In this document: positions 27,526 through 43,354 of the stretch, piece after piece
Layout: the number at the start of each line of letters is the position of its first letter
Numbering within the stretch: the stretch's first letter is position 1
Assembly (NCBI GenBank): GCA_017467275.1
Contig: JAFTSN010000022.1
Coordinates: 1 to 51,763, forward strand
Direction: 5' to 3'
DNA from: Clostridia bacterium
Lineage (GTDB): Bacteria; Bacillota; Clostridia; Christensenellales; Borkfalkiaceae
Length of the DNA: 51,763 bases
The notes under the pieces: model-generated
What the model was told of the DNA's origin: nothing
Database searches by the model: none
What the model saw: only the letters and a program-made list of their open reading frames with translations
Program-made: the position numbers and the translations under genes

Positions 27526-29580
27526 TTACCCGTTTTCACGATTCTTTCTCAAAAGTATAATGAGCATCAGTGCCGATAATAAGATCAGCGCACTTCCCCC
27601 CAACGCAGAGCCGCACCCACTCTTTTCTCTGCTTTCTTTCTGTGCCCCGTCCACGACGATCGGAAGCCGATAGGAAAGCGCGAAGCCCCTTGCCGTAAAT
27701 TCGACGTCGATAGAACTGTCGCCCTCCTTCAACGCCTCGTTTTTAGCCAAGACAAACCCGCCATCCACAATCAATTCGCTATTATCATTGAAAATCACGC
27801 GTAGTTTTAACCCCGCAAGAGCGGCGCTCTCCCCCGCGACGTAGATAAGCTTACAGGGAACAACTACGGAAACGCTCTCCACGGCAAGCTCGGTCACCTC
27901 GGGCACTTCCACCACAACGGGTATAGCAAGATACGCCGTCACGCCGTCTACCGTAAGTCCAATCACGACGGCTTTATCCGTCACTTTCAAGGGCTCGTTC
28001 GTCACAACGAAATAGCCGCCCCAAATTTCCTCCAACGATCCGTCCGCAAACTTCTTTTGGATCATGAGCCCCGCATCGTCAAAGCTTTCACCCACCGTAT
28101 AGAGAAGCTTTGTCGGCGGTTTATTGATCTGCAAGCCGACGAGCCTCTCTCCATCCGCATACACGCGTACCTCTCTTTCCAGCACGAGCGAGCCACTCGT
28201 CCAAGTCGCGGTATAAACGCCCGCCTGCGCACTCTCGACGGTATTTTCCGTTAAATTCACGGAAGTGGAAGCCCCGCCCTCTTCAGCGGTGTACACAACC
28301 GAAAGCGTGGCTTTCTCCGCGTTCAAAACGTTATTGGAAACCACTAACGCCTCGGGGAACGAAATGCTCTCCCCCTCGTTTGCCGAGGCGCAAAGCGCAC
28401 CTCTAAGCTCGAGTCGGTCTGCCTTCACGACCTCAAACGCCGCCACGCGGGTATAACTCTTTCCCTGCGCATTCGTGATCGTGAGCTCAAGCGAGTATTC
28501 TCCCGCCTCACCGACTGCGATCGCACCCGTGTTCCAGCCCGTTCCGTTATAGACCTCGGTTTTCGCGTCCTCTTTGATAAGGCTCGCCTTTATGTTCATT
28601 ATATTGCTGTTATAAACGCCGTCGCGCATGATCATGCCGTAAAACTCGGGCATATACCCGGGGGTATTCGTTGCAAATTTGGTGGGATCGACAAGATACG
28701 CCGTGTCGCCCGTAAAGCAAAGTCGGAAACTGGAATTTTCCACGACCGCCGCGTCTTGACGGATTTCGCTGATGTACGGCACATATTCATATGCTGTACC
28801 GCCGTCGAAACGCTGTCCGTTATGCTCCGTTATATAGAACCTGCGCTTGGATTCACCGCCACCCAGATCTCCCCAGAGCTGAATATACGGCTCAAAATAA
28901 ACAGTCGAGGCAAACGTCTCTTTAATGAGCGAGTTAAAGGTCTCCGTCTTTTCAGCGGTAGTCTCGCCTGCCACGTTGGAGCTAAACGCCGATGTGCTGT
29001 AAGTAACCGTATTGAAAATATCCGTTTCCACGGAATTGACCGTGCGGGTGGAAATCATGCCCGCGGCGTTATAATCAAAGCGAACGCCGTATTCGTAAGC
29101 CTCGGTCATATTCCCGATAATTTCCTCGCGGAAGGTGTAGCAATCCGAGCCGATATATAAGAGCACGGAAAAAACGGAGGTGTTGCCCGAACCCACGCTA
29201 TCCCCGAAGTTAAAGCGCAGGGTGTTGTTTTTGTCCTTTAAGGAGATCTGCACGCTCGTGCGGTAGTACTCCCCGTCGAGAACGCCCCCTTCAGCACTAT
29301 AGACGGGGTTGACGAAGGAGAGGGAAAAAGGCTGTTCTTTTAAATGTCTTTGCTTGAAATTGACCCCACTGTTTGAAGGGTTATTCAACTCAAAATACAT
29401 ACCCGCTTCCCGAACCTCGAAAACGTCCGTTTTATTATAAGGGTCGTATGCCGCTTTCAGCTTTTGCGTGTAATCCGCGGGATTTTCACTCTCCGCAGAA
29501 ACCGCCTCGGGCACACAAGCAAGCGCGGACGGAACGGTAAGCGCAAACGCCGCAAATAATGCCGCTATTCTCTTTTTCAT
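27526..29580 (-). CDS. Secreted Ig-like protein with Cys-containing C-terminal anchoring tail
   Basis: 684 aa from ATG 29580, which overlaps the upstream stop as ATGA and has AAGGAGGGCGGAGAG before it. Signal peptide MKKRIAALFAAFALTVPSAL. Middle part is beta-rich and unassigned (about 40-400). Then Ig-like domains, including two bacterial Ig-like (Big_3-type) copies: PPTKLLYTVGESFDDAGLMI and CKLIYVAGESAALAGLKLRV. The C-terminus reads KSGCGSALGGSALILLSALM followed by LIILLRKNRENG: Cys motif, hydrophobic span, basic end. Likely displayed at the cell surface as a glycan-binding partner. No catalytic residues recognised. Confidence 0.8.
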   Translation of the reverse strand: MKKRIAALFAAFALTVPSALACVPEAVSAESENPADYTQKLKAAYDPYNKTDVFEVREAGMYFELNNPSNSGVNFKQRHLKEQPFSLSFVNPVYSAEGGVLDGEYYRTSVQISLKDKNNTLRFNFGDSVGSGNTSVFSVLLYIGSDCYTFREEIIGNMTEAYEYGVRFDYNAAGMISTRTVNSVETDIFNTVTYSTSAFSSNVAGETTAEKTETFNSLIKETFASTVYFEPYIQLWGDLGGGESKRRFYITEHNGQRFDGGTAYEYVPYISEIRQDAAVVENSSFRLCFTGDTAYLVDPTKFATNTPGYMPEFYGMIMRDGVYNSNIMNIKASLIKEDAKTEVYNGTGWNTGAIAVGEAGEYSLELTITNAQGKSYTRVAAFEVVKADRLELRGALCASANEGESISFPEALVVSNNVLNAEKATLSVVYTAEEGGASTSVNLTENTVESAQAGVYTATWTSGSLVLEREVRVYADGERLVGLQINKPPTKLLYTVGESFDDAGLMIQKKFADGSLEEIWGGYFVVTNEPLKVTDKAVVIGLTVDGVTAYLAIPVVVEVPEVTELAVESVSVVVPCKLIYVAGESAALAGLKLRVIFNDNSELIVDGGFVLAKNEALKEGDSSIDVEFTARGFALSYRLPIVVDGAQKESREKSGCGSALGGSALILLSALMLIILLRKNRENG

Positions 29581-31481
29581 CTCTCCGCCCTCCTTTTTTT
29601 CAAAAACACAAAACCGATAAACGGCAACAAAAACACACCGCTCATCACGCTGACGGAGGAACCGCAACCCTTTTCCGCTGCCTTGATTGTCACTTTCGTT
29701 TTCAGCAATTTCCCGCTGTCCACGATATAAGTAGACAACTCGGAGACAATCTGAAAAGTAAACTCATACTCGCCAACCTTATCCTCGTAGGTTTCACTCG
29801 TCCAATAGCCGTAAACGGTGTGTTTCCCGCCGTCTGCGTCGGTAAGCTCTAGCTTTTCGGGGAGCGCCTTACGGATTTCGCCGATGTGCGTACCCACTTT
29901 AAACGTTTTCGCCTCTAATCCTGAAACCGCCGATATCGCAACATTTTCCACCGCTTTCACAATAACCGTGCCCGTCAGGACCTTCCGAACATCGACGACG
30001 TTTTCGGGCAACCCCGCGCTCGGCTTAAAGACCGCCTCGTATATCCCGACCGTCTTTAAATCCACGCTCGAGAAATCCCAAATGCCAACAAATTCATACT
30101 TCGTTCCGTAGTAGTCGGTCGCGTGAATCGTGGAGGGGAAGTTTTCACGGAGCGTTCCCACGCCCGTTCCCAAATAGACCTCCGTTTCCCGATAATCTTC
30201 GTCCGCTTTCACAAGATCGATATTGTCGCTTCCAATAGAGACCAATCCCTTTATATAATTCCCAGCGGTCACAATCCGCCCCGCAAAAATATCCGCTTCG
30301 TTAATTTTCGCAACGCGAATTTCACGGTTAGTTTCTCTGCCCATATCGTAGACAACGATAATATTCCCATCCTTATCAAGCGCCACCGCGGGATAGGATA
30401 CCCCCATCCTTTCGTCCAACAAAAGCTTGGAACTCTCCCACGTCCGACCCTCGTCCTTGGAAATAAATGCCGTCATGAGCTTTCTATCCTCAATCGTGTC
30501 GTGGTTGATCATGACGAGATTGCCCGATCGGGTGTAGATAAAACAGAACTTACTCCCCGGTCCCTTTAAGGGGTATTCCGTGAACGCAAAATCCGTCCAC
30601 GTGTAGCCTCCGTCATAAGAATATGACTCCTCCATTCCCTGCTTGCTCTGCCACTGTATGCGCTTGGTCATCCAAAGAGAGCCGTCTGCCCTCTCCACAA
30701 TACTCGCTTCGTTGTGTGCGGAATATTCGGCAGGCTTATCGGCATACCCCCGATATTTCCAGCTCGTGCCGTAATCGTCGCTCACGATATAAAAACCAAG
30801 CGCCCATTTCACGCCGTGGCATTGGATACTCGCCGCCCACGTGCCGTCCGAAAGCACAGTGATTTTCCAGAAATTCCCGTAACAGGAGAACGTGGGCGTT
30901 TTCGCCGTAACCGTTTCCTTCTCGTCGTTGAAATTTAAAATTTCCGTACGCCAAACGCACTGATAGTTAGTCTGCGTTTCATGATTTTGCGTCCAAAGCA
31001 GAAACAAACGGTTATCCTCGAACACAAACAGAGGGTCGGTCAGCCGCGCTTCGCCTGAAAGCTCGCCCGTGAAGTCAAAAATGAGAACAGGCTCCACCCA
31101 AGTGAGACCGCCGTCGTCACTATACCCCACGGCAAGACAGTTTTCGATATGCGGCTCACAATCACCACCAATCATCCACGCGCACCACATTCTCTCTCCC
31201 GTGACTGCAATTGCGGGAATTGCCGTAAACTCGCGATTATCCTTATATTTCGGGCGCTTATCCTCCTCATCCATCGTGTACCAATTAAACACGGTGGGCG
31301 GGTTCGTATACGAGGGGTCGGAAAAGTCTCGGCTAGCGGTGCCGTGTTCCAGCACGTATTCGTTCCAATCCACGTCCACCCCCGCCGCGCTCGCGCTTTT
31401 CTCCGAAACGATTCCCCCCACGGAAAGAATAAGAAGCGTGCTCAACAACCCCAAAAGGCAAAATTTAAGCTTTTTTAACAC
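29577..31481 (-). CDS. Secreted sialidase-fold (Asp-box) protein with Ig-like domains and Cys tail
   Basis: 634 aa from GTG 31481 (AGGAGGGGAAAGAC upstream). Signal peptide FCLLGLLSTLLILSVGGIV. A six-bladed-propeller-like domain (about 60-400) has four Asp-boxes: SDDGGLTW, SDDYGTSW, SYDGGYTW and SKDEGRTW. The segment that should be the FRIP motif reads FTAIPAI, so the first catalytic arginine of GH33 sialidases is missing; an acidic/aromatic set (YPAVALDKDGNIIVVYD) remains. Two C-terminal beta domains and the tail KGCGSSVSVMSGVFLLPFIG then KKRRAER follow. Probably a surface glycoside hydrolase or lectin whose substrate is not ordinary sialic acid. Confidence 0.82.
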   Translation of the reverse strand: MLKKLKFCLLGLLSTLLILSVGGIVSEKSASAAGVDVDWNEYVLEHGTASRDFSDPSYTNPPTVFNWYTMDEEDKRPKYKDNREFTAIPAIAVTGERMWCAWMIGGDCEPHIENCLAVGYSDDGGLTWVEPVLIFDFTGELSGEARLTDPLFVFEDNRLFLLWTQNHETQTNYQCVWRTEILNFNDEKETVTAKTPTFSCYGNFWKITVLSDGTWAASIQCHGVKWALGFYIVSDDYGTSWKYRGYADKPAEYSAHNEASIVERADGSLWMTKRIQWQSKQGMEESYSYDGGYTWTDFAFTEYPLKGPGSKFCFIYTRSGNLVMINHDTIEDRKLMTAFISKDEGRTWESSKLLLDERMGVSYPAVALDKDGNIIVVYDMGRETNREIRVAKINEADIFAGRIVTAGNYIKGLVSIGSDNIDLVKADEDYRETEVYLGTGVGTLRENFPSTIHATDYYGTKYEFVGIWDFSSVDLKTVGIYEAVFKPSAGLPENVVDVRKVLTGTVIVKAVENVAISAVSGLEAKTFKVGTHIGEIRKALPEKLELTDADGGKHTVYGYWTSETYEDKVGEYEFTFQIVSELSTYIVDSGKLLKTKVTIKAAEKGCGSSVSVMSGVFLLPFIGFVFLKKRRAER

Positions 31482-31493
31482 GTCTTTCCCCTC

Positions 31494-32387
31494 CTATAAC
31501 CCAAATTTTTTATTGATGGCGGTAGCAAGTACGTCGCTCTCCACCAAGGGCAGCAGATAGCGGTGCTTACCGCTCTCGTCGTATTCCATAACCGTCGTGC
31601 CCGTATCCCCGACCCGCACTCTACCGTGGCGGGATCTCACAAACAGCCCATTCTCCCCCTCGACCGCATACATAAGAGCAAGAATATCCCAACTCGGCCG
31701 GTCGCCGTGCGAAAAAATATCGTAGGCATAGCCAACAGGGTCTTTTTCATCCCTGCCGATGAGCCCACCCAAGGTAAGCACGTCAATGCCGAGATAAAAA
31801 TCGGCAAAGACCACCTCGCAAGGAAAGGTCCCGATCGCGCCCTTACTGTCGGAAACAGACGTCGCGATATTGTATTCGGCAAGATATTCCTTGCCCTCGA
31901 AAACGATCTTGCGGCTCCCGAACATACCGCCCATAATAACCGTCTCTTTCACCTTTCTTTCCACGAGCGAAACGCCGTCCTCGCCGTATTCGTCGGCGGG
32001 GCTTTTCAAAAGCTCGTTTGCATTGTTGAGCTGACCAATAAACACAAGCGTAACACTCTTATCCTTGCTCTCGGCAAGCTTGCGACGGATAAGACGTACC
32101 GCCGCCTCCCGTTCCTTTTTCTTTGCAACGCCGAATTTTTCCGCAAGCGCCTTACTGAACGAAACGTCCACGTAAGGAAAGCTCCCCTTATGTACACCGA
32201 TCTCCGTCTCCACACCGTAATAGGACAAAATCGCCTCGGCGCAACAGGGAGAATAGGGGTCGGAGGTGTTGATCGTAATCGCCAAAAGCCGCGCTCTTTC
32301 CTCTTTTACGTAACGACAGGCAAGCGCGATTGCAGCGGCGTCGTCGCAATCGTTGCCAAGGTCGGTATCAATGATCAAATTTACCAT
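31494..32387 (-). CDS. Nucleoside hydrolase (IUNH family)
   Basis: 297 aa. The N-terminal calcium-binding signature is clear (IIDTDLGNDCDDAAAI), followed by TLVFIGQLNNANELL, KETVIMGGMFG and AEYNIATSVSDSKGAI, and a C-terminal SWDILALMYAV that replaces the family's usual Asp region partner. Cytoplasmic: no signal peptide. It hydrolyses N-ribosides to base and ribose in characterised members. It is sandwiched with 12- and 3-nt gaps between two secreted sialidase-fold proteins in the same operon, so it likely processes an imported glycan product or acts on an unexpected N- or O-glycoside. Start ATG 32387 with AGGAAAG upstream. Confidence 0.88.
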   Translation of the reverse strand: MVNLIIDTDLGNDCDDAAAIALACRYVKEERARLLAITINTSDPYSPCCAEAILSYYGVETEIGVHKGSFPYVDVSFSKALAEKFGVAKKKEREAAVRLIRRKLAESKDKSVTLVFIGQLNNANELLKSPADEYGEDGVSLVERKVKETVIMGGMFGSRKIVFEGKEYLAEYNIATSVSDSKGAIGTFPCEVVFADFYLGIDVLTLGGLIGRDEKDPVGYAYDIFSHGDRPSWDILALMYAVEGENGLFVRSRHGRVRVGDTGTTVMEYDESGKHRYLLPLVESDVLATAINKKFGL

Positions 32388-32390
32388 AAC

Positions 32391-35300
32391 TTATTTTTCT
32401 TTCCTCTTTTTGTTCCCGAGGACTGCCCCAACGAGCGTAAGCGCAATTCCTGCGCCCGCGTTAAGCATTGCCGACGAGCAGCCGCTCTTTTTCTTCTTTT
32501 CGCTCTCCGTCGGAGTGCTCGCCTCGCCGCCCCCGCCGTTATTCCCGTCCGAGGGAGGCGTTACAGGCTCATTGGGAACAGCTTCGGGCGCCTCGACCGT
32601 CACCGTCATTTGAAGCAATAAATAGTTATCCTCCAGTCGAGAGGGAAGCTGCGTGACGAATTCAAGCGCGTATTCGCCGACTTCACCCTCCGCGAAATTC
32701 GCGAGCTTCCATGAGCCGGAAAGCACCTCCGAAGGCTTCTGATCGGTTTCAACGGTAATTTCCGTCGGCAAAGAACTTAAAATTTGCTCTTGCGTAACCC
32801 CTTTTTCAAACGAAAGATCAAGCTCCGTAACAACCCTTGTGATCTCGCTCCATGCGGGACTCTTGATCAACAATCCCATTTTCACGGCATTTTCGCTGAT
32901 AAATTTCCCCGCCTTGATATCCTCTTCGTTAAAAATGGCATATCTGATCTCCATTTCCGCCGCTCGCCCGCGATCGTAGGCAATATAGAAATCCCCGTCG
33001 GCAGTAAAGGTCAGATCGGGATAGGAGACCCAATTACGGTGATCGAGCTCGAGCGCATAGGGCCAAGTCTTACCGTCGTCCTCGCTTAAAAGCGCAGTCA
33101 GATGAGATCTGTTGGCGTCGCCCATATTGCCGACGTATAAAATATTCCCGCTTGACAGTTTTGTGTAGACGAATCTCGACGAGCCCGTTTTAAGTCCGTC
33201 AACCAAAACGCCCTGCGTCCACGTGTAGCCGCCGTCCTCGGAATAGCTGATCTCGGGATTAATAATGCCCTTATCCACGCGCTTCAAAAGGCTCAAAGTA
33301 CCGTCGGCATGCTCCACGATCTTTGCTTCGGTAAATCGGAAATCGCTCGCATAGGCAGGATCCGCCGTCGCCGTTCCGATTTTAGTAACGCTTAAGCCAC
33401 CGTCCGTCGATTTAAACACGTGTACCTCGCTCGGATGGTGCTCGGGGAGAGCCGCATTGTAAATATAACTGCCGTCGGAAAGCTTGGTCGGCTTGGAATT
33501 CATTAATCCGTCGAAAAGATAGATCGGCTCCGACCACGTGATATCCTCGATCCTTTCCGCATTGTAGTTGGTGGAGTACCGTCCCCAACAAGTAATATTT
33601 CCAAAGGTAGCGTTTGCCTGCATGGTAAACATCCACAATTTGCCGTCTACCAACCAAAGCACGGGATCGAGCACACGCGCCATGGTTTCATACGGATGAT
33701 CCACCAGCGCATAGGGCTTCATGGTTTTGCCGCCGTCCTCGCTCACGTAACAGATCCCCACGTTATCGATAAGCGGCTCCGTTCTGTCGCCCGTAATTAC
33801 AGCGATAAACATTCTGTTTTCACTCACTTGCTCTACGGCAGGACAACCGAAGAACTTGAAGTTATCGAGAAGATACTCTTCGGGAATATCCTCCCCGAAG
33901 CGGATTTCCGTGGGAACGTGTTTAGAAACAAACTCGCTCTCCTCTCCGTTCACAACGATCAAATACGCGCCGCTGACAGACAGCGTTTCGCCTTTGGTAA
34001 AGCTCTTTTTATAGCCAAACAGTCTACCCTCTATTCCGTCGATAAAGGAGTTGATCGCCAACGCCTTGGTAAAACCGTCCGCCGAAAAATCTTTGTCGGC
34101 AAACACGTAGACAACCCCCGCCTCCTTAATTTCGGCTTCCACCGTCTCGCCCTCGTCGAACAGGATATACTCGCAGGTGTCGTCGATCACGGACGGCACG
34201 TAATCGGTTTGGATCGTGGGCGTGCCCTCATAGAGCCCCGTGCTCTTATAAATCGGATAGGAGTCCTTGAGCTTATAGATATAATTATCGTCTCCGTCCT
34301 TTAATTCGACGGTTGCAAAGGTCTCGGCTGTGCCGACGTTCGTAGGCGCGTCGTCCGTGAGCCAAATGGAATTGACGCCGCGCTTAATCTCGACGCCTTC
34401 TGCCTCGAATACGGCGACGATCTCGGCGTCGGTCATTAAAACGGTCTTGAACAGACTGATTCCGTTATCATGTACGGAGGAAATACCCGTCGTTTCCACG
34501 TCCGTCAATGCACTCACGCTCTGTAAGCCCAGGCGCTCGCCCGCCTCCAACCCGATCACGGGAGAGCCGTTCTCCACGTCCACGAGAATATAGCCCTCGA
34601 AGCCGTCGGGGAGCTTAACGTTCCCGTTCACAGGCGACAACGTTTGCGTTTCGTCAAACACGGAGACCAAAGTCACGGCGCTCGGATAAACAACGTCGTT
34701 TCCGCTCCGATAGGAAAAGCTTACCGTCATATCCTCGAACTTTTCATTGAAAACATAATAGGCGAGCTTCTTTTGCGACGCGCCAAGCGACACGTTTACG
34801 CAAACCTCCCCCGCGTTTTCGGTTGCGTCGAAAATAATGCCCTGCATATCCATATAGCTATAATCCAATTTGGAGCTCACGACGGGCGTACAATAAGACG
34901 TCGAGCCCGAAAGACAGGAGGAGATCGCCTTTCTGCTGTTTGCCAACGTCGTGGCATAGAGCCCGCCGCCGTTCATTAAGACGGTGAAATTATCATAATT
35001 TTGAGTAAACGTACCGCTGAAATAAAAGCACTGACCGAACTCGAAGTCAAAGCCCTTGGATTCGGGCGTATCTAACGTGCCCTGCTGATCGTTGGAAACG
35101 CCTTGCGTCCCCTGCCCCGCAATCGCAAAATACGTCGCGTTCGTCCTTTCAAACATCCAATCTACGGTGTCTAAATCGATGACGATGTATCCGTTGAAGC
35201 GCGCGGGGAATTGAAAGGTGCTCCAGCTCGTGATCGGCTTGATCTCATCGATATATCCGCCGTTTGCGTCAAATAAATACGCGGATTTTCCCCACGCCAC

Positions 35301-36968
35301 GCCCGAGCGGTATTTGACCTCCTTGGAGCTGTCGTAGAAATAAAGATTTACCTGCGCCCCGTTCGCCGAATGGTCGGCGATTCTGAGCGCAAAATAATCC
35401 GCGCCGCTCAAATCGGACTCGTAGCCTTTAACGTATAAATAGCGGAACGCGTTGTCCTCAACGTCTTTTATGCGGAAATTTACGCCGTCGAGCAAGCCGT
35501 ATTCGACGTTATCCCCCGAAGCCCCGCTGTAATTCAAAAGGTGGCTCGCCTTTGAAATAACCACGCCGTGTGCAGTCGGAGCCGTCATGGAAAAACCGCC
35601 GTTAATGCCGTCGGGCGAAGCCTCGTCCGCAAAATCGAAATATACATCCGCACCCGCGATCAACGATTTAAAATCGCTTCTCTCGCTCAAGGCCCCGTCC
35701 GCCACGCGGACGTCGCCCATATCGAAGCTCATTAAGTTGCCGCCGTTCCAGTCCCCGTGCACCCCGATCATTAAATGCATATTCTCCGACCAAACGGGTT
35801 TATCCGCCGTCGAAAGATCGATAACGATATAGCCTACAAAGCCCTGCGGCGGATCGATCGACCAGGAAGCCGTCACCGACTTTACAAGGTCGAAGTCGGG
35901 CGTCACGTAATAAACCTTTGAATTGCCCAACCCGTATTCGTTATTCCCGAGGCAAAGCTTCGGCTCGAACTTCGCGCTGTTATTCCCCCTGTCGTAATAC
36001 TCGAACACAAGGCTCTTATCCTCGAAAGAACCGTCGTAAACGGGAAGCAACAGCTTCTGATAATTACTGTAGGATAAATCGGTCATCCGATAATTAATTC
36101 CCTCGAAATAACCCGCAAAATCCCCGTTTTTGACCGCTTTCAGTCCCAGCCAAGTCCCGAAGCCGTCCGTGGAAAGAGGGGTCAACCAGCCGATTTTGCT
36201 CCAGACCCCTTCCGCGTCGTGCGTGCCGCGATTCGGAAAACAGGCAAGCCACGCCGAATCGGTGTTTTTCGTCATCGTAATCCCGTTTAAAGAAACGTTC
36301 TCCGACTCGCAGATTTTTTCGTATTCGGTTGTTTTCAACCATACGTCGCCGAATATGAAATCCGCGTTATCACTGGAAGCCCCGCTAATTCTCGCGCCCA
36401 CCGAGGAAACGGTAAAACTCTCACCGAGCACCGTTCCGAACTTGGAAACGGCGGCGACGTTTTCTTTATCCGCTCCGTAATTATCAAACGCACAGCGCAT
36501 ATAGAAATCGGAGACGGAAAAGGAGATCGCAACCTTTCCCTTGGAAAGATAGTTTCCGACGCCCGTCCAGTCCTCGGCGGTTTTTGTCGTTCCGTTCTTT
36601 AATAAGGAGAGCGTGGGGGCGTAAACGTATTCGGCGCTAACCCCGTCCGAGGCAACAAACTCGAAATACTCGCCCTTATCGGTGATTACAAACGGGCGAA
36701 TATCTTCCCCGCCGTTGAACTCGAATTCAAAAACGATTTCCGTCGCGCCCGCAAGGGATACCGATTCCTTCAAATTGACGATCAGCGTTTGATCTTGCGT
36801 TTGGTCGTCGATGGAGTCGGCATCTTCAACAAAGACGCGGATTCCGTCGGTATAACGCGTCGTATCTTCAGCCGCCGACGGTACGTGAACGGAAAGGAAT
36901 ATCCCCGCCGATAACAATAACGCGATTATCGGCAAAAATACCCTGAAAATATTTTTTTGTTTTTTCAT
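32391..36968 (-). CDS. Giant secreted multi-module protein with sialidase-fold domain and Cys tail
   Basis: 1525 aa from ATG 36968 (TAAGAGGAGC upstream; an earlier in-frame ATG lacks a spaced ribosome binding site). Signal peptide IFRVFLPIIALLLSAGIFLS. First module (about 60-210) resembles those of the 926-aa protein (DIRPFVITDKGEYFEF ... MRCAFDNYGADK). Three further beta modules each contain GYI(V/L)(I/V)D: GFVGYIVIDL, FNGYIVIDL and FEGYILVDV. A C-terminal sialidase-fold domain (about 1035-1380) has Asp-boxes SEDGGKTM, STDGGLSV, SEDGGYTW, SEDDGKTW but CPAV instead of a FRIP arginine. A Pro/Gly linker and the tail KKKKSGCSSAMLNAGAGIAL end it. Surface glycan binding/degradation is inferred. 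Confidence 0.82.
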   Translation of the reverse strand: MKKQKNIFRVFLPIIALLLSAGIFLSVHVPSAAEDTTRYTDGIRVFVEDADSIDDQTQDQTLIVNLKESVSLAGATEIVFEFEFNGGEDIRPFVITDKGEYFEFVASDGVSAEYVYAPTLSLLKNGTTKTAEDWTGVGNYLSKGKVAISFSVSDFYMRCAFDNYGADKENVAAVSKFGTVLGESFTVSSVGARISGASSDNADFIFGDVWLKTTEYEKICESENVSLNGITMTKNTDSAWLACFPNRGTHDAEGVWSKIGWLTPLSTDGFGTWLGLKAVKNGDFAGYFEGINYRMTDLSYSNYQKLLLPVYDGSFEDKSLVFEYYDRGNNSAKFEPKLCLGNNEYGLGNSKVYYVTPDFDLVKSVTASWSIDPPQGFVGYIVIDLSTADKPVWSENMHLMIGVHGDWNGGNLMSFDMGDVRVADGALSERSDFKSLIAGADVYFDFADEASPDGINGGFSMTAPTAHGVVISKASHLLNYSGASGDNVEYGLLDGVNFRIKDVEDNAFRYLYVKGYESDLSGADYFALRIADHSANGAQVNLYFYDSSKEVKYRSGVAWGKSAYLFDANGGYIDEIKPITSWSTFQFPARFNGYIVIDLDTVDWMFERTNATYFAIAGQGTQGVSNDQQGTLDTPESKGFDFEFGQCFYFSGTFTQNYDNFTVLMNGGGLYATTLANSRKAISSCLSGSTSYCTPVVSSKLDYSYMDMQGIIFDATENAGEVCVNVSLGASQKKLAYYVFNEKFEDMTVSFSYRSGNDVVYPSAVTLVSVFDETQTLSPVNGNVKLPDGFEGYILVDVENGSPVIGLEAGERLGLQSVSALTDVETTGISSVHDNGISLFKTVLMTDAEIVAVFEAEGVEIKRGVNSIWLTDDAPTNVGTAETFATVELKDGDDNYIYKLKDSYPIYKSTGLYEGTPTIQTDYVPSVIDDTCEYILFDEGETVEAEIKEAGVVYVFADKDFSADGFTKALAINSFIDGIEGRLFGYKKSFTKGETLSVSGAYLIVVNGEESEFVSKHVPTEIRFGEDIPEEYLLDNFKFFGCPAVEQVSENRMFIAVITGDRTEPLIDNVGICYVSEDGGKTMKPYALVDHPYETMARVLDPVLWLVDGKLWMFTMQANATFGNITCWGRYSTNYNAERIEDITWSEPIYLFDGLMNSKPTKLSDGSYIYNAALPEHHPSEVHVFKSTDGGLSVTKIGTATADPAYASDFRFTEAKIVEHADGTLSLLKRVDKGIINPEISYSEDGGYTWTQGVLVDGLKTGSSRFVYTKLSSGNILYVGNMGDANRSHLTALLSEDDGKTWPYALELDHRNWVSYPDLTFTADGDFYIAYDRGRAAEMEIRYAIFNEEDIKAGKFISENAVKMGLLIKSPAWSEITRVVTELDLSFEKGVTQEQILSSLPTEITVETDQKPSEVLSGSWKLANFAEGEVGEYALEFVTQLPSRLEDNYLLLQMTVTVEAPEAVPNEPVTPPSDGNNGGGGEASTPTESEKKKKSGCSSAMLNAGAGIALTLVGAVLGNKKRKEK

Positions 36969-36975
36969 GCTCCTC

Positions 36976-38535
36976 TTACCCCCTTTCATTCTTCCTCTTC
37001 AACGCCGCGCCGAGCGCCGCCGCCGATAAGAGGACAAACGCGCTTCCCGTCAACGCGGAGCCGCACCCGCTCTTTTTCTCCGCCTTTCTCACGGCGATAC
37101 GCAAGGTAACCGTTCCCGAAGCGGAGCCGTCCGCGCTCGAAGAGGTGTAAATGACCTTATAAACGCCCTGCGCCGTGGGCTTGAACGAATTTCCCTCGCC
37201 GAGCTCCACTTCCTTGCCGTAGGGGTTTTCCACCTTGACGGCAACCGCGCACTCCGCGCCGTGCTTATCCGTCGCCGAAGCGGCGGGCAAGACGATCTCC
37301 TTTCCCACCGTTCCCTCGATCGTGTCGCCGTCCGAATAGCCCTCCACGCTCAAAAGGAATCCGCGCACCGCCTCGAACTGCGTCTCGGGCGTGGTGTAGG
37401 AATTTCCCGCCTCGTCCGTGACCGTCACGCTGATCTTATGTACGCCGAGCTCCTCGAACACGAGCTTTGAAAAATCGTCGTAGGTGGGATACGTCGTTTC
37501 CTTGCCCGACGGCGCCACCACTTTCGCCGAGAAGGTCAGTCTGTCGTAGCAGACGACGTCGGAGGCGTAATCGCAATAGAAATCCGCTTTGCCCAAATCG
37601 CGGGGACTGCTTTGCACCTCGAGGGAATATTCCTTTTTGATATTGATTTCCTTATTCCCTCTGATCTGCACGGGCGCGACGAACGGCGCCGCGTTATCGA
37701 CGAGAACGCCGTCGCTGTTTGCAAGCGACTGCCCGTTGACCTCGGTAATGATCATCTTGCTCACCGCCTCGGGGTCGTGCTCCACGCATCCGTCCACGGG
37801 ACATTCCGCATACGGACACTGCGCGGAAAGACGGAAATAGACCTGCACCGTCTTGCACTCGTTCCCCTCGGGGTTGAATTTTGCGTTTAAGGACTCTTGG
37901 ACCGCCTGCCCGTTTTCAACCGTTCCGCTTGCAGTGAGTAGAGACGCCTTTTCAGTTGTCCAATCCCCCCAGACCGCCTTGAAAAAGTCGGTGGTGTTAA
38001 AGGAGATATCGAACTCGCTGTTTTCGCGCATCACGCCCTTGACCCAAACGTTATCCGCGACCTCGTTCGGCTTTTCCTCGGGCGTCTTATCGTGCAGATC
38101 GCCGCAGGTGATCTTCGCCGCGACGTTGGTCGAATCCACGCTCTTTCCCGAATCCCCCCAAAGCCGCAAAACCGCCATGCCCGAATTATCGAAGCTCTCT
38201 ACGATCATATCCACGATATATTTCGTGTAGACGCTCCCGTTTTCCGTAACGTTGTTTTCGCTCTCGTTTTCATACACGGGCACCTTGAACTTGACGTTCA
38301 CTTCCTTTCCGTCGGAGACGTCGAAGAACATGGAAAAGCCGCCGCCTTCCCATTGTCCCGCATAGACGGCAAGCCCTTCCTCTTCCCAAGCGGTATAGTC
38401 TGCCCATTGAATGATTTTCGTCGCGTCGCCGTAGACCTCTTTATTCGTTTCCGTCACCGCAGCCGCCGCGTGCACGCCACTAAAGAAAGAGCACGCCGTT
38501 AAAATTAAAGCAACCGTTGCAATCGTCTTTTTCAT
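36976..38535 (-). CDS. Secreted beta-domain protein with Cys-containing C-terminal tail
   Basis: 519 aa from ATG 38535 (AGGTGGGTAAAACG upstream; a GTG four codons earlier overlaps that site). Signal peptide TIATVALILTACSFFSGVHA. An N-terminal ~260-residue beta domain with four Cys (CPYAECPVDGC) is followed by two Ig-like domains (about 285-380, about 385-475) and the tail KSGCGSALTGSAFVLLSAAA then KRKNERG. No catalytic motif seen; probably a surface glycan-binding protein next to the transporter. Tightly packed in the operon (overlaps or abuts its neighbours within 10 nt). Confidence 0.8.
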   Translation of the reverse strand: MKKTIATVALILTACSFFSGVHAAAAVTETNKEVYGDATKIIQWADYTAWEEEGLAVYAGQWEGGGFSMFFDVSDGKEVNVKFKVPVYENESENNVTENGSVYTKYIVDMIVESFDNSGMAVLRLWGDSGKSVDSTNVAAKITCGDLHDKTPEEKPNEVADNVWVKGVMRENSEFDISFNTTDFFKAVWGDWTTEKASLLTASGTVENGQAVQESLNAKFNPEGNECKTVQVYFRLSAQCPYAECPVDGCVEHDPEAVSKMIITEVNGQSLANSDGVLVDNAAPFVAPVQIRGNKEINIKKEYSLEVQSSPRDLGKADFYCDYASDVVCYDRLTFSAKVVAPSGKETTYPTYDDFSKLVFEELGVHKISVTVTDEAGNSYTTPETQFEAVRGFLLSVEGYSDGDTIEGTVGKEIVLPAASATDKHGAECAVAVKVENPYGKEVELGEGNSFKPTAQGVYKVIYTSSSADGSASGTVTLRIAVRKAEKKSGCGSALTGSAFVLLSAAALGAALKRKNERG

Positions 38536-38539
38536 CGTT

Positions 38540-40114
38540 TTACCCACCTATATAGTTTTTCGTATTACTAACAAGCTCTCCACGTATATTCTCCACCTTT
38601 GCACGGCAAAGAAGCCCGTTTTCGAGCGTGACTTTGTTTCCTTCTACCAAGACGGAAGCCCCCGCCTCTTTCCATTCGCCTCCAAAATACGCACCGTAGG
38701 AAAATCCCGAGAAATCGGCGTTTCCAAGCTCAATCGAAGCAAGCTCGCTCGCGAACAGATAGACGTAGCCCTGATAGACGATCGCAAAGCCGACCGCGCC
38801 CGCCGCCGTCTCAAACGCGGCACTAACGCCCGTCGTATTTACGCTCTGAAAACACTCCGTTTCAGGCGTCGATTCCTCCAGATTAAACACGGCGAAATCT
38901 GCCTTATTCCCAAGGAGCACGCAATCCCCCGCACCAACGAGCGCCTTTAAGGTCCGTCGCACGCTCTCCGTGTGCGCCTTATCCGTTCCGTCAGGATTAA
39001 GCACGCCGTGGTCGATCTCCTCCAAGGTAGAATCTCCGCGGTTTTCAATAAAGTGCACCGCCGTGGACAGATCGTAGATAATATACCCCGCCCCGCAATA
39101 TGCCGAGGTCAAAAGCAAGCTCGCCGTATTTTTATAGGATCCCTTATTTTCAGCGCAGTGCGCGAAGTTCCCTGGAAGCTCGCTCTGCAATTCCTTGTGG
39201 AGATTATACGTCCCCCCCACACTCGTGATATACGGATCGTTCCCCACGCAGTCTATGCCGTCGAGATTAAAAAGCCGCACGGCATAATCGGTTGCCCCTT
39301 TCAGTTTGGCACAATTCACGCGGGTAACCACGTTGTATTTCGCCCGCTTGAACGCCTTGCCCGCGTTATCGATTGCCTTGCAGACGTCCGCCCAAGCCTC
39401 TTGAGGCGTGATCGGCTTACCGCCGTCAGAGATCTGTTGTTGCGCCACCCGCCAATTCGGATAGGTGTCGGGCTCGTTATAGACCTGCACGCCGATCAAA
39501 GGATGTGTTTCGCCGTTGTTCAAATCCCATTGATAAACGAAATCCATCAGCTCTCCGATCACGAGCGACTCTCGCTTTAAAAGCGCCTTACTTGCCTTGA
39601 GATAACCCTGCTCGCCGTAGTAGCTCCAAAAAGCCCCTTTGTTGAGAGAATCATATTTGGGATAAGTCTCCTCATCCGTCCAGATATAATCGGGCACCTG
39701 ATAACTATTGCTCTCGCCGCACATATTGATCGAATACCAAAGCAGGTCGAGCTTAACGTCGTATTTAACAGAAAAGCTGAGAAGCGTTCCAACGACGGAG
39801 AAATCGTAGAGTCCCTTTTCAGGCTCCACGTCCCGCCAATCAACGGGCACCGCCAAAACGTTCGCCCCCAGCGCTTTCGCGTTTACAAATTGCGCTTCGA
39901 AATCCTCCACCGTCTGATTTTCGCAGTTCATATACGCGTCCAGACGGGATTCCACGCCGAAATAATGAAAGGGCTTGCCGTCTACCTCGAGATAGGTCAC
40001 ACCGTATTCGTTTGTCGCAATGCGGGAAATGACGTCCACTTCCTCCTTTCCTCCGCACCCGCCGAACGCACACAGCGCCAACAGAGCCGATAAAAACACC
40101 GCTGTCTTTTTCAT
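38540..40114 (-). CDS. Lipoprotein glycoside hydrolase-like protein (clan-A TIM barrel, GH42/DUF4978-like)
   Basis: 524 aa. Lipoprotein signal peptide ending LCAFGGC, lipidated at C20. TIM-barrel segments typical of GH-A enzymes: FHYFGVESRLDAYM, GANVLAVPVDWRDVEPEKG, LLWYSINMCGES, and the acid/base candidate E214 in GVQVYNEPD with nucleophile candidate E322 in HCAENKGS. The C-terminal ~120 residues form a small beta domain. Such proteins resemble beta-galactosidase-like families; the exact substrate is unknown. It lies between the permease and the tailed proteins, so it likely trims glycan outside the membrane before uptake. Confidence 0.82.
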   Translation of the reverse strand: MKKTAVFLSALLALCAFGGCGGKEEVDVISRIATNEYGVTYLEVDGKPFHYFGVESRLDAYMNCENQTVEDFEAQFVNAKALGANVLAVPVDWRDVEPEKGLYDFSVVGTLLSFSVKYDVKLDLLWYSINMCGESNSYQVPDYIWTDEETYPKYDSLNKGAFWSYYGEQGYLKASKALLKRESLVIGELMDFVYQWDLNNGETHPLIGVQVYNEPDTYPNWRVAQQQISDGGKPITPQEAWADVCKAIDNAGKAFKRAKYNVVTRVNCAKLKGATDYAVRLFNLDGIDCVGNDPYITSVGGTYNLHKELQSELPGNFAHCAENKGSYKNTASLLLTSAYCGAGYIIYDLSTAVHFIENRGDSTLEEIDHGVLNPDGTDKAHTESVRRTLKALVGAGDCVLLGNKADFAVFNLEESTPETECFQSVNTTGVSAAFETAAGAVGFAIVYQGYVYLFASELASIELGNADFSGFSYGAYFGGEWKEAGASVLVEGNKVTLENGLLCRAKVENIRGELVSNTKNYIGG

Positions 40115-40117
40115 AGC

Positions 40118-40972
40118 TTACTCCTTTATCCCTGAGGATACGATTCCGCGCACGAATGCGTTCTGTGCCGAGAACAGCACGACGACCATGGGCAGAGAGA
40201 ACATCACGCACCCCGCCATGACCTTGTTCCATTCCATAACGCCGCTCGCGTCTTGGAAATTGTAAAGGCTCAAGGAAAGGGTCTGCAATTCCGCGTCGAG
40301 CAGATAAATGCTCGGTCCGACGTAATCCCCCCAAACGTTATTGAAGCTGAACACAATCAGCGTTGCAAGAACGGGCTTCATGTTGGGCAAAAGAATTTTA
40401 ACGAGAATCCCGAGAGTCGAACAACCGTCGAGCATCGCCGCCTCGTCGAGACTCTTAGGAAGTCCGAGCATAAATTGCCTCAACAAAAAGATATTAAACG
40501 CCGAACCGCCCACTGCAGGAATTATGAGCGGCAAACGCGTCCCAATCCAACCAATATAGCGATAGAGCGCAAAGCTGGGGATCATGGTAATCACCCAAGG
40601 GAGCATCATTGTCGAGAGCAGAAGACTGAACAAAAAGCTCTTTCCTCTCGCTTCAAAACGGGCGAAGCCGTAGGAGACGAGGACCGAGCCTAAAAGGGTG
40701 AGCCCCATGACCGAAACCACGAGCAACAGCGTATTCCCGAACGCGCGGGGAAACACCATGGTCTCGAATGCGTCTTTATAATTTTCAAACCGAAGTTTTT
40801 CGGGAAACACCTTGGGCGGCCACTTGAAAATATCCGACGATTCGGGTTGCAAGGAGCATAAGAGCATATAGAGGAACGGGAGGCAGAACAAAACGGCGAT
40901 CACCCCCGCTCCGATTGTGCCCGCAAGCGCGACGGGTTTGATTTTCTTTTTTAATCCATCATTCGCCCGCAT
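40118..40972 (-). CDS. Sugar ABC transporter permease (CUT1, MalG-type)
   Basis: 284 aa from ATG 40972 (GGAAGGTGTACT upstream; an earlier in-frame ATG gives an unlikely N-terminus). Six predicted spans and the EAA loop DEAAMLDGCSTLGILVKILL (docking site for the ATPase, about residues 180-200) with the LPxxKP continuation. It overlaps the MalF-type permease gene by 14 nt. It imports oligosaccharide with the solute-binding protein and partner permease. No ATPase is encoded in the operon; Firmicute CUT1 systems commonly share a MsmX-type ATPase encoded elsewhere. Confidence 0.95.
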   Translation of the reverse strand: MRANDGLKKKIKPVALAGTIGAGVIAVLFCLPFLYMLLCSLQPESSDIFKWPPKVFPEKLRFENYKDAFETMVFPRAFGNTLLLVVSVMGLTLLGSVLVSYGFARFEARGKSFLFSLLLSTMMLPWVITMIPSFALYRYIGWIGTRLPLIIPAVGGSAFNIFLLRQFMLGLPKSLDEAAMLDGCSTLGILVKILLPNMKPVLATLIVFSFNNVWGDYVGPSIYLLDAELQTLSLSLYNFQDASGVMEWNKVMAGCVMFSLPMVVVLFSAQNAFVRGIVSSGIKE

Positions 40973-41867
40973 AGTACACCTTCCTTTTGCTGGCGACAAA
41001 GAAAACCGCCGTGAGTAGCATGGTTAAAATAAAGATGAGCCATCCCTGCGCAGAAGCATACCCGATGCCATAGGCGTCGAGCGCAAACGCGTTTTCCACA
41101 ACGAGCATTGCCATCGTGACCGTTTCAGACATAGAGCCCGTCAAAAGCTTGACCTCCGCATAGACCTGTATCGCACCGATAAAACCCGTAATCATGGAGA
41201 AAAACACGGTGGAGCTGATCATGGGGAGGGTAATTCTGTAAAACCTGACCGCTGCGTTTGCGCCGTCAATCCTCGCCGCCTCTAAAAGATCCTGTGGCAC
41301 CCCCTGAAGCCCCGCCAAAAGTATGAGCATGGAGGGACCCAGTCCGCTCCAGATATTGATGCCCACAACACTGAAAAGCGCCCGCTCAGGGGAGAGAAAA
41401 TCAGGTTTATCGAGCCCAACCAACGTGAACAGATAGCTGACGATATTCCGATCCTGAAAGATCATGAGCTTCCATAAGAGCGTGGAGCCGACAATGGGAA
41501 TGATCGCAGGCAAATAGATCATGGTGCGGAATATCTTCCTCCCCTTGATCTGCATATTTAAGAGCATCGCGACAAGAAGCGCCAACGCCGTCCCTAAAAA
41601 CACGCGCAAAAAGGAATATAAAAGTGTGTTTCCGATTGAACGGAGAAAGCGGGTATCCTTCGCAAAGACCCAAGTATAATTTTCAAATCCGATAAATTTA
41701 AGCGGCTTCGTCGTCAGCGTCGTGATCTTTGCCGACGTGAAACTCATCACGAGACTGAACGCCATCGGAATCACCGTGAACAGCAAAAACACGATTAGCC
41801 ACGGCGAAACGTAGAGATAAAAATTCACCGTAGATCGCAACTTTGAATTATATTTTTTCGTTCGCAT
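40959..41867 (-). CDS. Sugar ABC transporter permease (CUT1, MalF-type)
   Basis: 302 aa, six spans: first FYLYVSPWLIVFLLFTVIP, typical of CUT1 MalF-like permeases, and the EAA loop LEAARIDGANAAVRFYRITL. Start ATG with GGGGGGATT. Partner of the MalG-type permease with which it overlaps. Second gene of the operon, 11 nt after the binding protein. Confidence 0.95.
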   Translation of the reverse strand: MRTKKYNSKLRSTVNFYLYVSPWLIVFLLFTVIPMAFSLVMSFTSAKITTLTTKPLKFIGFENYTWVFAKDTRFLRSIGNTLLYSFLRVFLGTALALLVAMLLNMQIKGRKIFRTMIYLPAIIPIVGSTLLWKLMIFQDRNIVSYLFTLVGLDKPDFLSPERALFSVVGINIWSGLGPSMLILLAGLQGVPQDLLEAARIDGANAAVRFYRITLPMISSTVFFSMITGFIGAIQVYAEVKLLTGSMSETVTMAMLVVENAFALDAYGIGYASAQGWLIFILTMLLTAVFFVASKRKVYYAGE

Positions 41868-41878
41868 AATCCCCCCGT

Positions 41879-43255
41879 TTATTTCATTCCACGCGAGATT
41901 GCGGCGTTAATCTCCGAAGCGGCAGCATTGAGCGCCTGCGTGAGCGTCATGGGGTTTTGCTCTGCCCAAACGCGCGGGATATAATCGCCTAAAATACTCT
42001 CCACTCTCGATTGATCGATATAGAAATTATACGTGAGCGGCGACGCCTTTTCGAGATATTTAATAAAATAGTTGTTGAGCTGTTTATGATACGCGTCGTC
42101 CACGTTTAAGAAATCGCCGTAAGCGATCGTCTTATTCCCGGGAATATTGTAGCCCGTTCTCACGTACTCTTTCATGCCCGCGGTCATATAATATTCAAGG
42201 AACGCATATGCGATATCGGGATTCTTCGACTGTGCCGAAATCGCATGCGAAATCATGGTCGTGGCGCAATACGCCTCACCGCCGCCGTTCGGGGTGGGAG
42301 GAGGCGCGACACCGATCTCAAAGTTCACGTCATACCAGCCGTAGGACTCGAACGCCCAACGCCCGTTCCAAACCACGCTGATCTCCCCATTCTTAAAGCC
42401 CTCGCCGCCGCCCTCGCTGTTGGTGACGGAAGCCGCCGACTTCGTGTCTCCGCTCTGGAACGAGATAAAATATTCAAACGCCGATTTCACGGCATCCGAA
42501 CCTACGTTGAGATAGTGCATATCCTCCGTGAACAGCGTGTCGCCGCCCATCTGTATCCATTCCATCACGTGCTTCCAAGGCACCTGATCGAGAGTGGTAC
42601 CGTAGCGGGTAATATCCCCGTTGGAATCAAATTTAGTCAAAAGACGGCACATCTTCGTGCATTGCGCCCAGCTCATGGGTACGTCGGCAGAGGGATAAAC
42701 GCCGCTCTCGTCCGTCGGATAACCCACCGCCTCTGCCAAGGACACTGCGTTTTCCTCGTTGTATTTCTCGATGTGCTTTTTGTTGTAGATCATCATAAAG
42801 TCAGGCGTGAGATCCTTGATGACGGCATAGAGCTTCCCGCTCCCCATCTTGCCGTTTGCGGAATCGTAGCGGTAGGAATCGTTCAGTTCCCAAAGATCGC
42901 TTTTATCAAGATTCTCCCCCTTTTCGAGATATTCGTCCAGCTCAAGCAAAAGCCCGTCCTTAATAAAGCCCTCGATCATGCCGCCTTCCATATAGAACAA
43001 GTCGGGCGCATTCCCGCCGCCAAAGTAGGTTTTGAGGTTGTCGTAGTAAATGCCATTTGAGGGCTGAACCTCCACCTTCCATTCAGGGTGCAGAAGCTCG
43101 AAATCGTCGGCAAGCTGCTGAGCCATGGCAATCTCCTCCCGCGAGCCCCATAAATAATAGGTTATACTCTTATCGTTCTCCTTTTTACAGCCCGCCACGC
43201 CTAGCGTCGTTGCCGCTAAAACAAAGCCGAAAAAACAGCTCAAAAATTTTTTCAT
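41879..43255 (-). CDS. Extracellular solute-binding lipoprotein (sugar ABC transporter)
   Basis: 458 aa from ATG 43255 (AAAGGGAGGGTATCC upstream). Lipobox TLGVAGC with C23 as lipidated residue. Family 1 binding-protein features: ITYYLWGSREEIAMAQQLAD, FELLHPEWKVEVQ, and the APDLFYMEGG segment, ending near residue 455 with NAAASEINAAI. First gene of the operon, so probably the highest expressed. Likely binds an oligosaccharide released by the surface enzymes. Confidence 0.95.
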   Translation of the reverse strand: MKKFLSCFFGFVLAATTLGVAGCKKENDKSITYYLWGSREEIAMAQQLADDFELLHPEWKVEVQPSNGIYYDNLKTYFGGGNAPDLFYMEGGMIEGFIKDGLLLELDEYLEKGENLDKSDLWELNDSYRYDSANGKMGSGKLYAVIKDLTPDFMMIYNKKHIEKYNEENAVSLAEAVGYPTDESGVYPSADVPMSWAQCTKMCRLLTKFDSNGDITRYGTTLDQVPWKHVMEWIQMGGDTLFTEDMHYLNVGSDAVKSAFEYFISFQSGDTKSAASVTNSEGGGEGFKNGEISVVWNGRWAFESYGWYDVNFEIGVAPPPTPNGGGEAYCATTMISHAISAQSKNPDIAYAFLEYYMTAGMKEYVRTGYNIPGNKTIAYGDFLNVDDAYHKQLNNYFIKYLEKASPLTYNFYIDQSRVESILGDYIPRVWAEQNPMTLTQALNAAASEINAAISRGMK

Positions 43256-43284
43256 GGATACCCTCCCTTTATAATTTTTTATCA

Positions 43285-43354
43285 ATTATATTATGCAATA
43301 AATTTTATCACTAATGTGGCTAATTTTGCTCTTTTTATTAATTTTTTTGGCTAA
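43285..43354 (-). promoter_or_regulatory. Operon promoter with AraC-type direct repeats
   Basis: Minus strand: TATAAT (43285-43290), 18-nt spacer, poor -35 TTAGTG (43309-43314). Directly upstream, TTAGCCA occurs at 43317-43323 and again at 43348-43354, exactly 31 bp apart, about three helical turns, on the same face. A good -10 with a bad -35 next to an activator site is the pattern of class II AraC activation. Confidence 0.55.

What the first reader, a model, noticed from the sequence alone, without database searches (positions are those of the whole stretch)
27526..38535. Candidate uncharacterised Cys-containing C-terminal sorting signal on four operon proteins
Four different secreted proteins end alike: Lys-rich, then (S)GC(G/S)S, a ~20-residue hydrophobic span, and a short basic end (tails at about 27529-27636, 29580-29681, 32394-32501, 36979-37086). 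There is no LPxTG. Position and shape match processed tails such as MYXO-CTERM and Synerg-CTERM, where a Cys precedes the span and is thought to be cut and possibly lipidated by a dedicated membrane protease. Here the tail would anchor glycan-active proteins.
Basis: partly seen in the sequence, partly recalled or inferred. Interest (0 to 1): 0.82.

Follow-up and report, generated by a model that had tools for sequence, protein, structure and literature searches.

The report
C-terminal lipid-anchor tag with matching enzymes
Many surface proteins of this bacterium end in the same short cysteine-bearing tag, and related genomes carry, in a good number of cases as neighbouring genes, a lipid-attaching enzyme and a membrane protease that could swap the tag for a lipid anchor, which would be a mirror image of ordinary bacterial lipoproteins.

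Summary
Four operon proteins end K-rich, (S)GC(G/S)S, about 20 hydrophobic residues, basic end, at the stated places. A profile of these four found 13 more in the same genome, all at C-termini (16 of 17 with GC, one SC). The tail recurs in at least four families of the order. The genus almost lacks sortase.

Following the Cys led to candidate enzymes. In 247 genomes of the order one CPBP (Rce1-like) protease clade tracks the tail: 17 have both, 4 only the protease, 5 only the tail. In 43 of 80 loci found with a divergent Lgt (diacylglyceryl transferase), this CPBP gene lies beside it; in 4 of them a tail-protein gene lies directly upstream. All 37 such genomes tested match the tail profile.

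Most likely mechanism: an Lgt-type enzyme lipidates the tail Cys and the CPBP protease removes the transmembrane tail. This is C-terminal anchoring of the MYXO-CTERM kind, with a candidate for its unidentified lipidating enzyme. Chemistry and cleavage are inferred, not shown. The window's own assembly (79% complete) has Lgt paralogues but not that CPBP clade, and divergent Lgts also occur in tail-less genomes.

The parts
27526..29667 (-). Secreted 713-codon frame (likely Met start inside, MKKRIAALFAAFALT...), C-terminal GCGS tail; no over-cut-off Pfam domain
27529..27636 (-). Tail 1: ESREKSGCGSALGGSALILLSALMLIILLRKNRENG; Cys codon 27613-27615
29577..31481 (-). Secreted 634-aa protein, BNR_2 sialidase-type propeller (E 5.6e-20), GCGS tail
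29580..29687 (-). Tail 2: IKAAEKGCGSSVSVMSGVFLLPFIGFVFLKKRRAER; Cys codon 29664-29666
31494..32387 (-). Inosine-uridine nucleoside hydrolase family protein without tail (no signal peptide by eye), between tail genes
32391..36989 (-). Secreted 1532-aa protein with BNR_2 domain (E 3.9e-17), GCSS tail
32394..32501 (-). Tail 3: EKKKKSGCSSAMLNAGAGIALTLVGAVLGNKKRKEK; Cys codon 32478-32480
36976..38547 (-). Secreted 523-aa protein, GCGS tail; the only one of 21 tail proteins with a strict lipobox pattern (LTAC) in its signal peptide
36979..37086 (-). Tail 4: KAEKKSGCGSALTGSAFVLLSAAALGAALKRKNERG; Cys codon 37063-37065
38540..40114 (-). DUF4978 / GH35-like protein without tail; a loose lipobox (FGGC, by eye; not caught by the strict pattern): probably a classical lipoprotein
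40118..43285 (-). Three further genes on the same strand: two that read as ABC transporter permeases (by eye) and a solute-binding-type protein with a strict lipobox (VAGC)
   Evidence: function by eye

Best explanation
The tail is a C-terminal protein-sorting signal. The protein is exported by its N-terminal signal peptide; the tail's hydrophobic span stops in the membrane with the basic end inside and the GC motif at the outer face (inferred from anatomy). An Lgt-type enzyme, in many relatives a divergent 'GCC-type' paralogue and elsewhere perhaps the ordinary Lgt, attaches diacylglycerol to the conserved Cys (inferred). A CPBP glutamic intramembrane protease then cuts on the C-terminal side of the lipidated Cys (inferred), leaving the enzyme domain lipid-anchored by its C-terminus: an inverted lipoprotein pathway in which Lgt plus CPBP stand where Lgt plus LspA stand for N-terminal lipoproteins. 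Shown here: the tail family, its place and Cys, its co-occurrence with one CPBP clade, the lgt-CPBP gene pair, four loci with a tail gene directly upstream, and conserved residues in both enzymes. In the window's organism the tail proteins include sialidase-type and carbohydrate-esterase proteins, so the anchor probably displays glycan-degrading enzymes.
For: Tail family: 17 of 17 hits C-terminal in own genome. In 54 loci fetched by later searches the best hit is within 12 residues of the stop in 53 and has GC in 53 (some of these tails are in the profile). Protease: a CPBP clade of 15 rows holds 14 of 18 tail genomes and 1 of 12 tail-less ones. In a 247-genome sample of the order the clade (E<=1e-50, a line drawn after seeing the gap to 1e-25) and Cys-tails (E<=0.001) coincide 17/4/5/221 (Fisher 1.9e-18); in genomes not used to define the clade 8/3/4/209 (5.6e-10; the tail profile was not held out). 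EExxFR, H207 and H243 are kept in 58 of 58 clade members. Gene pair: in 43 of the best 80 loci found with the divergent Lgt, the clade's CPBP gene is adjacent, same strand in 42, stop-to-stop frames overlapping in 41; the query held four CPBP-adjacent Lgts of nine, so 43 of 80 is not an unbiased rate. Five tail genes lie directly upstream in 4 of those 43 loci and nowhere else in the 80 (E<=1e-5). Tail-profile matches in 37 of 37 cassette genomes, best E 1.2e-4 or lower (33 of 33 without the four whose tails entered the profile), against 23 of 247 in the order sample with the same profile at E<=0.001. In 25 of the 37 I read the best hit: a C-terminal GC tail each time. Lgt paralogue: PF01790 E 7e-31 to 3e-33 in three; aligned to the solved Lgt 5azb, the Arg of GRLG and of FFR meet Arg residues that are kept in 80 of 80. 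A strict N-terminal lipobox is present in 1 of 21 tail proteins.
Against: No cleavage or lipid was observed. G000 (this genome, 79% complete) has tails and four Lgt homologues but no member of the CPBP clade. Tail genomes G020, G023, G053, G081, G100 and G224 lack it too; G077, G262 and G087 have it without a detected tail (G082 has a weak one). The divergent Lgt is not dedicated: at E<=1e-27 it occurs in 65 of 225 sample genomes without Cys-tail, and G147, G159, G249 and G258 have tails and CPBP without it. The two genes are not adjacent in 5 of 7 genus genomes with the clade nor in the f31 loci read. The clade's resemblance to the NCBIfam myxosortase models is below cut-off and no stronger overall than that of another CPBP of G000 (L049: MrtA 9e-8, MrtS 4e-7). 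Two of 13 genomes with a non-adjacent divergent Lgt, one a Candidatus Borkfalkia, have no tail match. The genomes are related, so the p-values overstate independence.
Confidence: 0.64

Rival explanations
1. The tail is a plain stop-transfer membrane anchor that is never processed; the Cys is conserved for another reason (for instance acylation at the membrane face or helix packing).
For: The shape (span plus KK/RK) fits any C-terminal anchor. At least one long protein in the same genome has a Cys-less tail of that kind (contig C13:28679-31693). G000 lacks the CPBP clade.
Against: GC is conserved on proteins of several unrelated domain types and across families. A plain anchor predicts no link to a protease clade, yet 17/4/5/221 and 37 of 37 were found, nor tail genes next to lgt-CPBP pairs.
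Confidence: 0.15
2. The CPBP and the divergent Lgt serve modification of ordinary N-terminal lipoproteins (as LnsB, a remote CPBP relative, does in Staphylococcus aureus), and the tail association is by descent only.
For: LnsA/LnsB precedent (PMC7387801, passages read). Divergent Lgt also occurs in tail-less genomes. In G000 two Lgt paralogues directly follow a gene for a short secreted protein, Cys-rich in one by eye.
Against: LnsB is described as divergent in the CPBP catalytic motifs, whereas the clade keeps EExxFR, H207 and H243 in 58 of 58. The CPBP clade tracks tails in several families. Five tail genes sit directly upstream of the pair in 4 loci.
Confidence: 0.09
3. The CPBP cuts the tail without prior lipidation, releasing the protein or leaving another anchor; the neighbouring Lgt is coincidental.
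For: G147, G159, G249 and G258 have tail and CPBP but no divergent Lgt at E<=1e-27.
Against: An ordinary Lgt may serve there: G249 has one; the other three were not checked. The conserved Cys and the overlap of lgt and CPBP frames in 41 of 42 same-strand pairs argue for a lipid step.
Confidence: 0.1
4. The tail is an LPxTG-like sortase signal with a degenerate motif.
For: The LPXTG model TIGR01167 matches 24 of 47 tails at E<=1, best 2e-4.
Against: No LPxTG-like motif; PF04203 sortase absent from G000 and from 36 of 37 genomes of its genus, while 12 of 24 other genomes of the order have it.
Confidence: 0.02

Closest known systems
MYXO-CTERM / myxosortase MrtX (Myxococcota)
   Same: Invariant Cys, span, basic end; CPBP protease; N-terminal signal peptide; many surface hydrolases; GCGC form of the motif also seen here. 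[quoted passage not shown]
   Different: Clostridia, where no outer membrane or type II secretion step is assumed (not tested); Lys-rich rather than Arg-rich; TIGR03901 matches only 5 of 47 tails at E<=1; CPBP below the Mrt cut-offs; a divergent Lgt gene is paired with the CPBP gene, which the passages I read do not report for MYXO-CTERM.
Synerg-CTERM / MrtS and JDVT-CTERM / MrtJ
   Same: JDVT-CTERM: Cys-containing tail with a cognate CPBP and a two-gene neighbourhood of MrtJ and target (PMC11980579). Synerg-CTERM/MrtS as the same kind: from the NCBIfam model names and recall.
   Different: Synerg-CTERM model matches 1 of 47 tails (E 3.5e-5), JDVT none among the 25 families listed of 45; MrtJ 21.7-37.4 bits against cut-off 75.
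Classical lipoprotein pathway (Lgt + LspA)
   Same: Lgt-type transferase, Cys at the outer membrane face, intramembrane protease acting next to it.
   Different: Opposite helix direction, C-terminal anchor, CPBP in place of LspA (inferred).
LnsA/LnsB lipoprotein N-acylation (Staphylococcus)
   Same: A membrane protein with remote CPBP homology works on lipoproteins.
   Different: LnsB diverges in CPBP catalytic motifs; this clade keeps them.

Membership tests
MYXO-CTERM (TIGR03901) | Tail scores over the curated model | tested here: inconclusive
   5 of 47 tails match at E<=1, best 4.4e-5; bit scores against the cut-off are not shown in the group table; TIGR03901 is not listed for any of 10 own-genome tails at E<=10
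MYXO-CTERM (TIGR03901) | Cognate protease is MrtX, MrtC or MrtP over cut-off | tested here: not met
   five clade members scanned: Mrt_core 26-32 bits in three against 100; MrtC 19-22 in two against 195; MrtP 19-26 in two against 250; no separate MrtX model was listed
Synerg-CTERM (TIGR04564) / MrtS | Tail and MrtS over cut-offs | tested here: not met
   1 of 47 tails at E<=1; MrtS 24.3 bits in one of five clade members, cut-off 130
Cys-containing, CPBP-processed C-terminal sorting signals (as a kind) | Tripartite tail with conserved Cys on many unrelated exported proteins | tested here: met
   all 20 hits of profile A3 in G000 at E<=0.01 end in a Cys tail, plus L017: 19 of 21 as GC; a hit in a 41-aa frame on C19 and three unlisted hits were not read; 53 of 54 loci elsewhere
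Cys-containing, CPBP-processed C-terminal sorting signals (as a kind) | Co-occurrence with one CPBP clade having the EExxxR and His motifs | tested here: met
   17/4/5/221; 58 of 58 keep EExxFR and both His; tail-only exceptions G000, G053, G081, G100, G224
Cys-containing, CPBP-processed C-terminal sorting signals (as a kind) | Cleavage next to the Cys | not testable with these tools
   needs mass spectrometry or immunoblot
Prolipoprotein diacylglyceryl transferase | Family membership and conserved Arg residues | tested here: met
   PF01790 over cut-off; but TIGR00544 91 bits against 118.9, below NCBI's lgt cut-off; Arg residues aligned with 5azb; that 5azb is from E. coli and that these Arg are essential is recalled
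LPXTG / sortase | LPxTG-like motif and a sortase | tested here: not met
   no motif; 0 sortase in G000, 1 of 37 genus genomes
GlyGly-CTERM / rhombosortase | rhomboid protease | tested here: not met
   none in G000; matches of at most 26.6 bits in the genus against 120-133 bits in three other genomes

The most novel reading that the evidence does not exclude
Bacteria of this order, and other Clostridia-named MAGs, run a C-terminal lipoprotein pathway: a self-contained gene cassette (substrate, Lgt paralogue, CPBP protease) attaches diacylglycerol to a C-terminal Cys and removes the membrane tail, the mirror image of Lgt/LspA. As far as my searches show, it would be the first genetically linked lipidating enzyme for Cys-containing C-terminal sorting signals.
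Probability: 0.56. Interest if true: 0.9.

Novelty: new variant of a known kind. Interest (0 to 1): 0.8.

Why it matters
The 2025 myxosortase paper (PMC11980579, passages read) shows that a CPBP protease cuts MYXO-CTERM but leaves the lipidating enzyme unidentified, with Lgt as leading guess. Here a divergent lgt gene is physically paired with a CPBP gene and, in four loci, with a tail-protein gene. That makes the open question directly testable with a three-gene cassette. It may also explain how a sortase-poor lineage displays sialidase-type and esterase proteins, and it warns that such tails can be confused with LPXTG anchors by the profile models.

Tried and rejected
Sortase and rhomboid as processing enzymes: rejected. 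The two CPBPs of the window's own genome (L048 beside a truA-like gene, L049 beside a sigma factor, both recognised by eye): L049's group is in all 10 genus genomes examined and in three others of the family (G236, G245, and tail-less G077), but not in the tail-rich family f31. It remains a fallback for G000. Exosortase (PF09721) was planned but not searched. The phage search was not useful. One preprint on lipidated peptides (PMC12636315, passages) concerns ordinary N-terminal lipoprotein processing. PMC13393428 (passages) gave nothing on the lipid step. A search for the neighbours of the CPBP (tuf and ABC genes in G027, G036, G026) in the held parts of G000 found only distant matches, so its absence is unresolved. 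Haft 2024, which I recall as the paper defining the myxosortases, could not be read; what I say of it comes from its citation and from recall. That neither tail nor cassette is in print rests only in an open-licence library.

G270's tail hit lacks Cys and was dropped from the count (kept). Five CPBP hits at E 1e-21 to 1e-25 were not counted as the clade. In one search I gave 37 of the 43 cassette loci (left out L248, L249, L250, L263, L272, L308) and 13 of the 37 others; of these 13, 11 had tail matches.
Full report
Observation. The four tails are in frame at the stated places, on proteins with N-terminal signal peptides. The gene run (27.5-43.3 kb, - strand) also holds a nucleoside hydrolase, a DUF4978/GH35-like protein and a solute-binding-type protein (the last by eye). 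The last has a strict N-terminal lipobox (VAGC) and the GH35-like one a looser FGGC; neither has a tail. So two kinds of anchored protein seem to sit side by side.

Genome-wide family. A profile of the four tails found 17 hits in the window's genome, G000 (1.55 Mb, 28 contigs, 79% complete), all C-terminal ends of long frames. All 20 hits of the later profile A3 at E<=0.01 end in a Cys tail; with L017 I count 21 tail proteins, 19 with GC. A hit in a 41-aa frame and three unlisted hits were not read. A scan that used no profile, only hydrophobicity and basic residues, gave GC in 16 of 23 single-span C-termini of the held parts, parts mostly fetched for their tail hits. In 61 genomes profile A2 hits 34 of 37 genus members at E<=1 (26 of 37 at E<=0.01). 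Among the other 24 of the order two are below 0.01, and one of those is not a Cys tail. Tails with the same motif occur in families f1, f18, f28 and f31, with single cases in f10 and f19.

Organism. Contigs of G001, G002 and G007, all of the window's genus, match in length the named records JAQYLE010000027 (Clostridia bacterium), DLQW01000087 ('Christensenella sp. UBA7597') and DVGN01000031 (Candidatus Scatosoma pullicola). I therefore place the window in or near Scatosoma, in an order that is probably Christensenellales; that last step is inference and recall. NCBI puts Scatosoma in Clostridia incertae sedis and Candidatus Borkfalkia, a relative, in Christensenellales.

Cargo. Over Pfam cut-offs, 6 of 21 tail proteins have BNR_2 propellers and 4 of 21 SASA carbohydrate-esterase domains; the rest have LRR, Ig-like, phosphoesterase, repeat or no domains. 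These families are not proof of sialic acid as substrate.

Known sorting systems. No NCBIfam tail model was matched over cut-off. In the 47-tail scan LPXTG (24), NPXTG (17), MYXO-CTERM (5) and Synerg-CTERM (1) models match some tails at E<=1. Sortase: none in G000, 1 of 37 in the genus (a genome with 6% contamination), 12 of 24 outside. Rhomboid: none in G000, weak matches in some of the genus.

Protease. G000 has two CPBPs over the PF02517 cut-off. Over 30 genomes, chosen as 18 with and 12 without tails, a tree separates one clade of 15 rows (support 91/62, inside a 99/96 branch that also holds one other row). It is present in 14 of 18 tail genomes and 1 of 12 others. The missing tail genomes are G000, G020, G023 (79, 74, 82% complete) and G053 (97%). 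In 247 genomes of the order the clade (E<=1e-50) and Cys-tails (E<=0.001) coincide 17/4/5/221. Restricted to genomes not used in defining the clade, with G270 still counted and the tail profile not held out, the table is 8/3/4/209. Relatedness makes the p-values too small, but f1, f28 and f31 each show the pairing. The clade keeps EExxFR, H207 and H243 in 58 of 58. It resembles the myxosortase models below their cut-offs (MrtJ in 5 of 5, Mrt_core in 3 of 5), but so does L049 of G000 to others (MrtA, MrtS), so this does not set the clade apart.

Lipid transferase. In G001, G002 and G245 the gene beside this CPBP is a divergent Lgt, and in G229 too. It has mostly GRxGC(F/L)xxGCC(H/Y)G where the ordinary Lgt has GRWGNF-type. 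G000 has four Lgt homologues, three of the divergent type. A scan of named genomes with this Lgt kept the best 80 of 546 loci. In 43 of the 80 the CPBP of the clade is adjacent, in 42 on the same strand, with stop-to-stop frames overlapping in 41. The query alignment held four CPBP-adjacent Lgts of nine, so this is not an unbiased rate. In L273, L284, L290 and L315 five tail-protein genes end directly upstream of the pair on the same strand; no other tail at E<=1e-5 occurs in the 80 loci. The tail profile matches in 37 of 37 cassette genomes tested (of 43 cassette loci), best E 1.2e-4 or lower, and in 11 of 13 genomes whose Lgt is not beside the CPBP. For 25 of the 37 I read the best hit and it is a C-terminal GC tail. 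The same profile finds 23 of 247 order genomes at E<=0.001.

Limits. The divergent Lgt is widespread: 82 of 247, 65 of them without a Cys-tail, and four tail genomes of f31 with the CPBP lack it. So either it has other jobs as well, or an ordinary Lgt can do the step, as PMC11980579 proposes for E. coli. Some tail genomes lack the CPBP clade and some CPBP genomes lack tails. In the window's genome the protease clade is missing from the assembly.

Mechanism and verdict. The economical reading is lipidation of the tail Cys by an Lgt-type enzyme followed by CPBP cleavage: an inverted lipoprotein pathway. The tail, the association and the gene clusters are shown; the chemistry is inferred. It works like MYXO-CTERM sorting, but its protease is not a member of the myxosortase families by the models tested. 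I rate it a new variant of a known kind, with unusual interest because it puts a lipidating-enzyme candidate in one gene cluster with protease and substrate.

Noticed in passing
L214:2419-4419 (-), L232:3011-5035 (+), L233:2876-4915 (+): In three genus genomes (G027, G025, G028) the divergent Lgt reads in one open frame into a galactokinase-like protein (by eye); in G000 (L211) the two are separate neighbours.
   Followed up: partly
L209:3365-5121, L210:3321-4926 (G000): Two further Lgt paralogues each directly follow a gene for a short secreted protein (Cys-rich in L210, by eye), perhaps a second Lgt-substrate pairing.
   Followed up: no
all 47 tails of alignment A6: NCBI's LPXTG model, with a low cut-off (15.9 bits), matches 24 of 47 tails at E<=1, so some may get annotated as LPXTG proteins although no LPxTG and almost no sortase is present in the window's genus.
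   Followed up: partly
L067:8679-11693 (-), G000: A 1005-aa protein with the same kind of C-terminal span and Lys end but no Cys, near genes with strict lipoboxes: a natural control for an unprocessed anchor.
   Followed up: partly
G053, G081, G100 (family f18): Genomes 97, 93 and 89% complete with GCS/GCK tails but without the CPBP clade; G053 has two other CPBP genes close together on one contig (L116/L142), a possible alternative protease.
   Followed up: no
31494-32387: A nucleoside hydrolase gene without export signal (by eye) is embedded between tail-protein genes.
   Followed up: no
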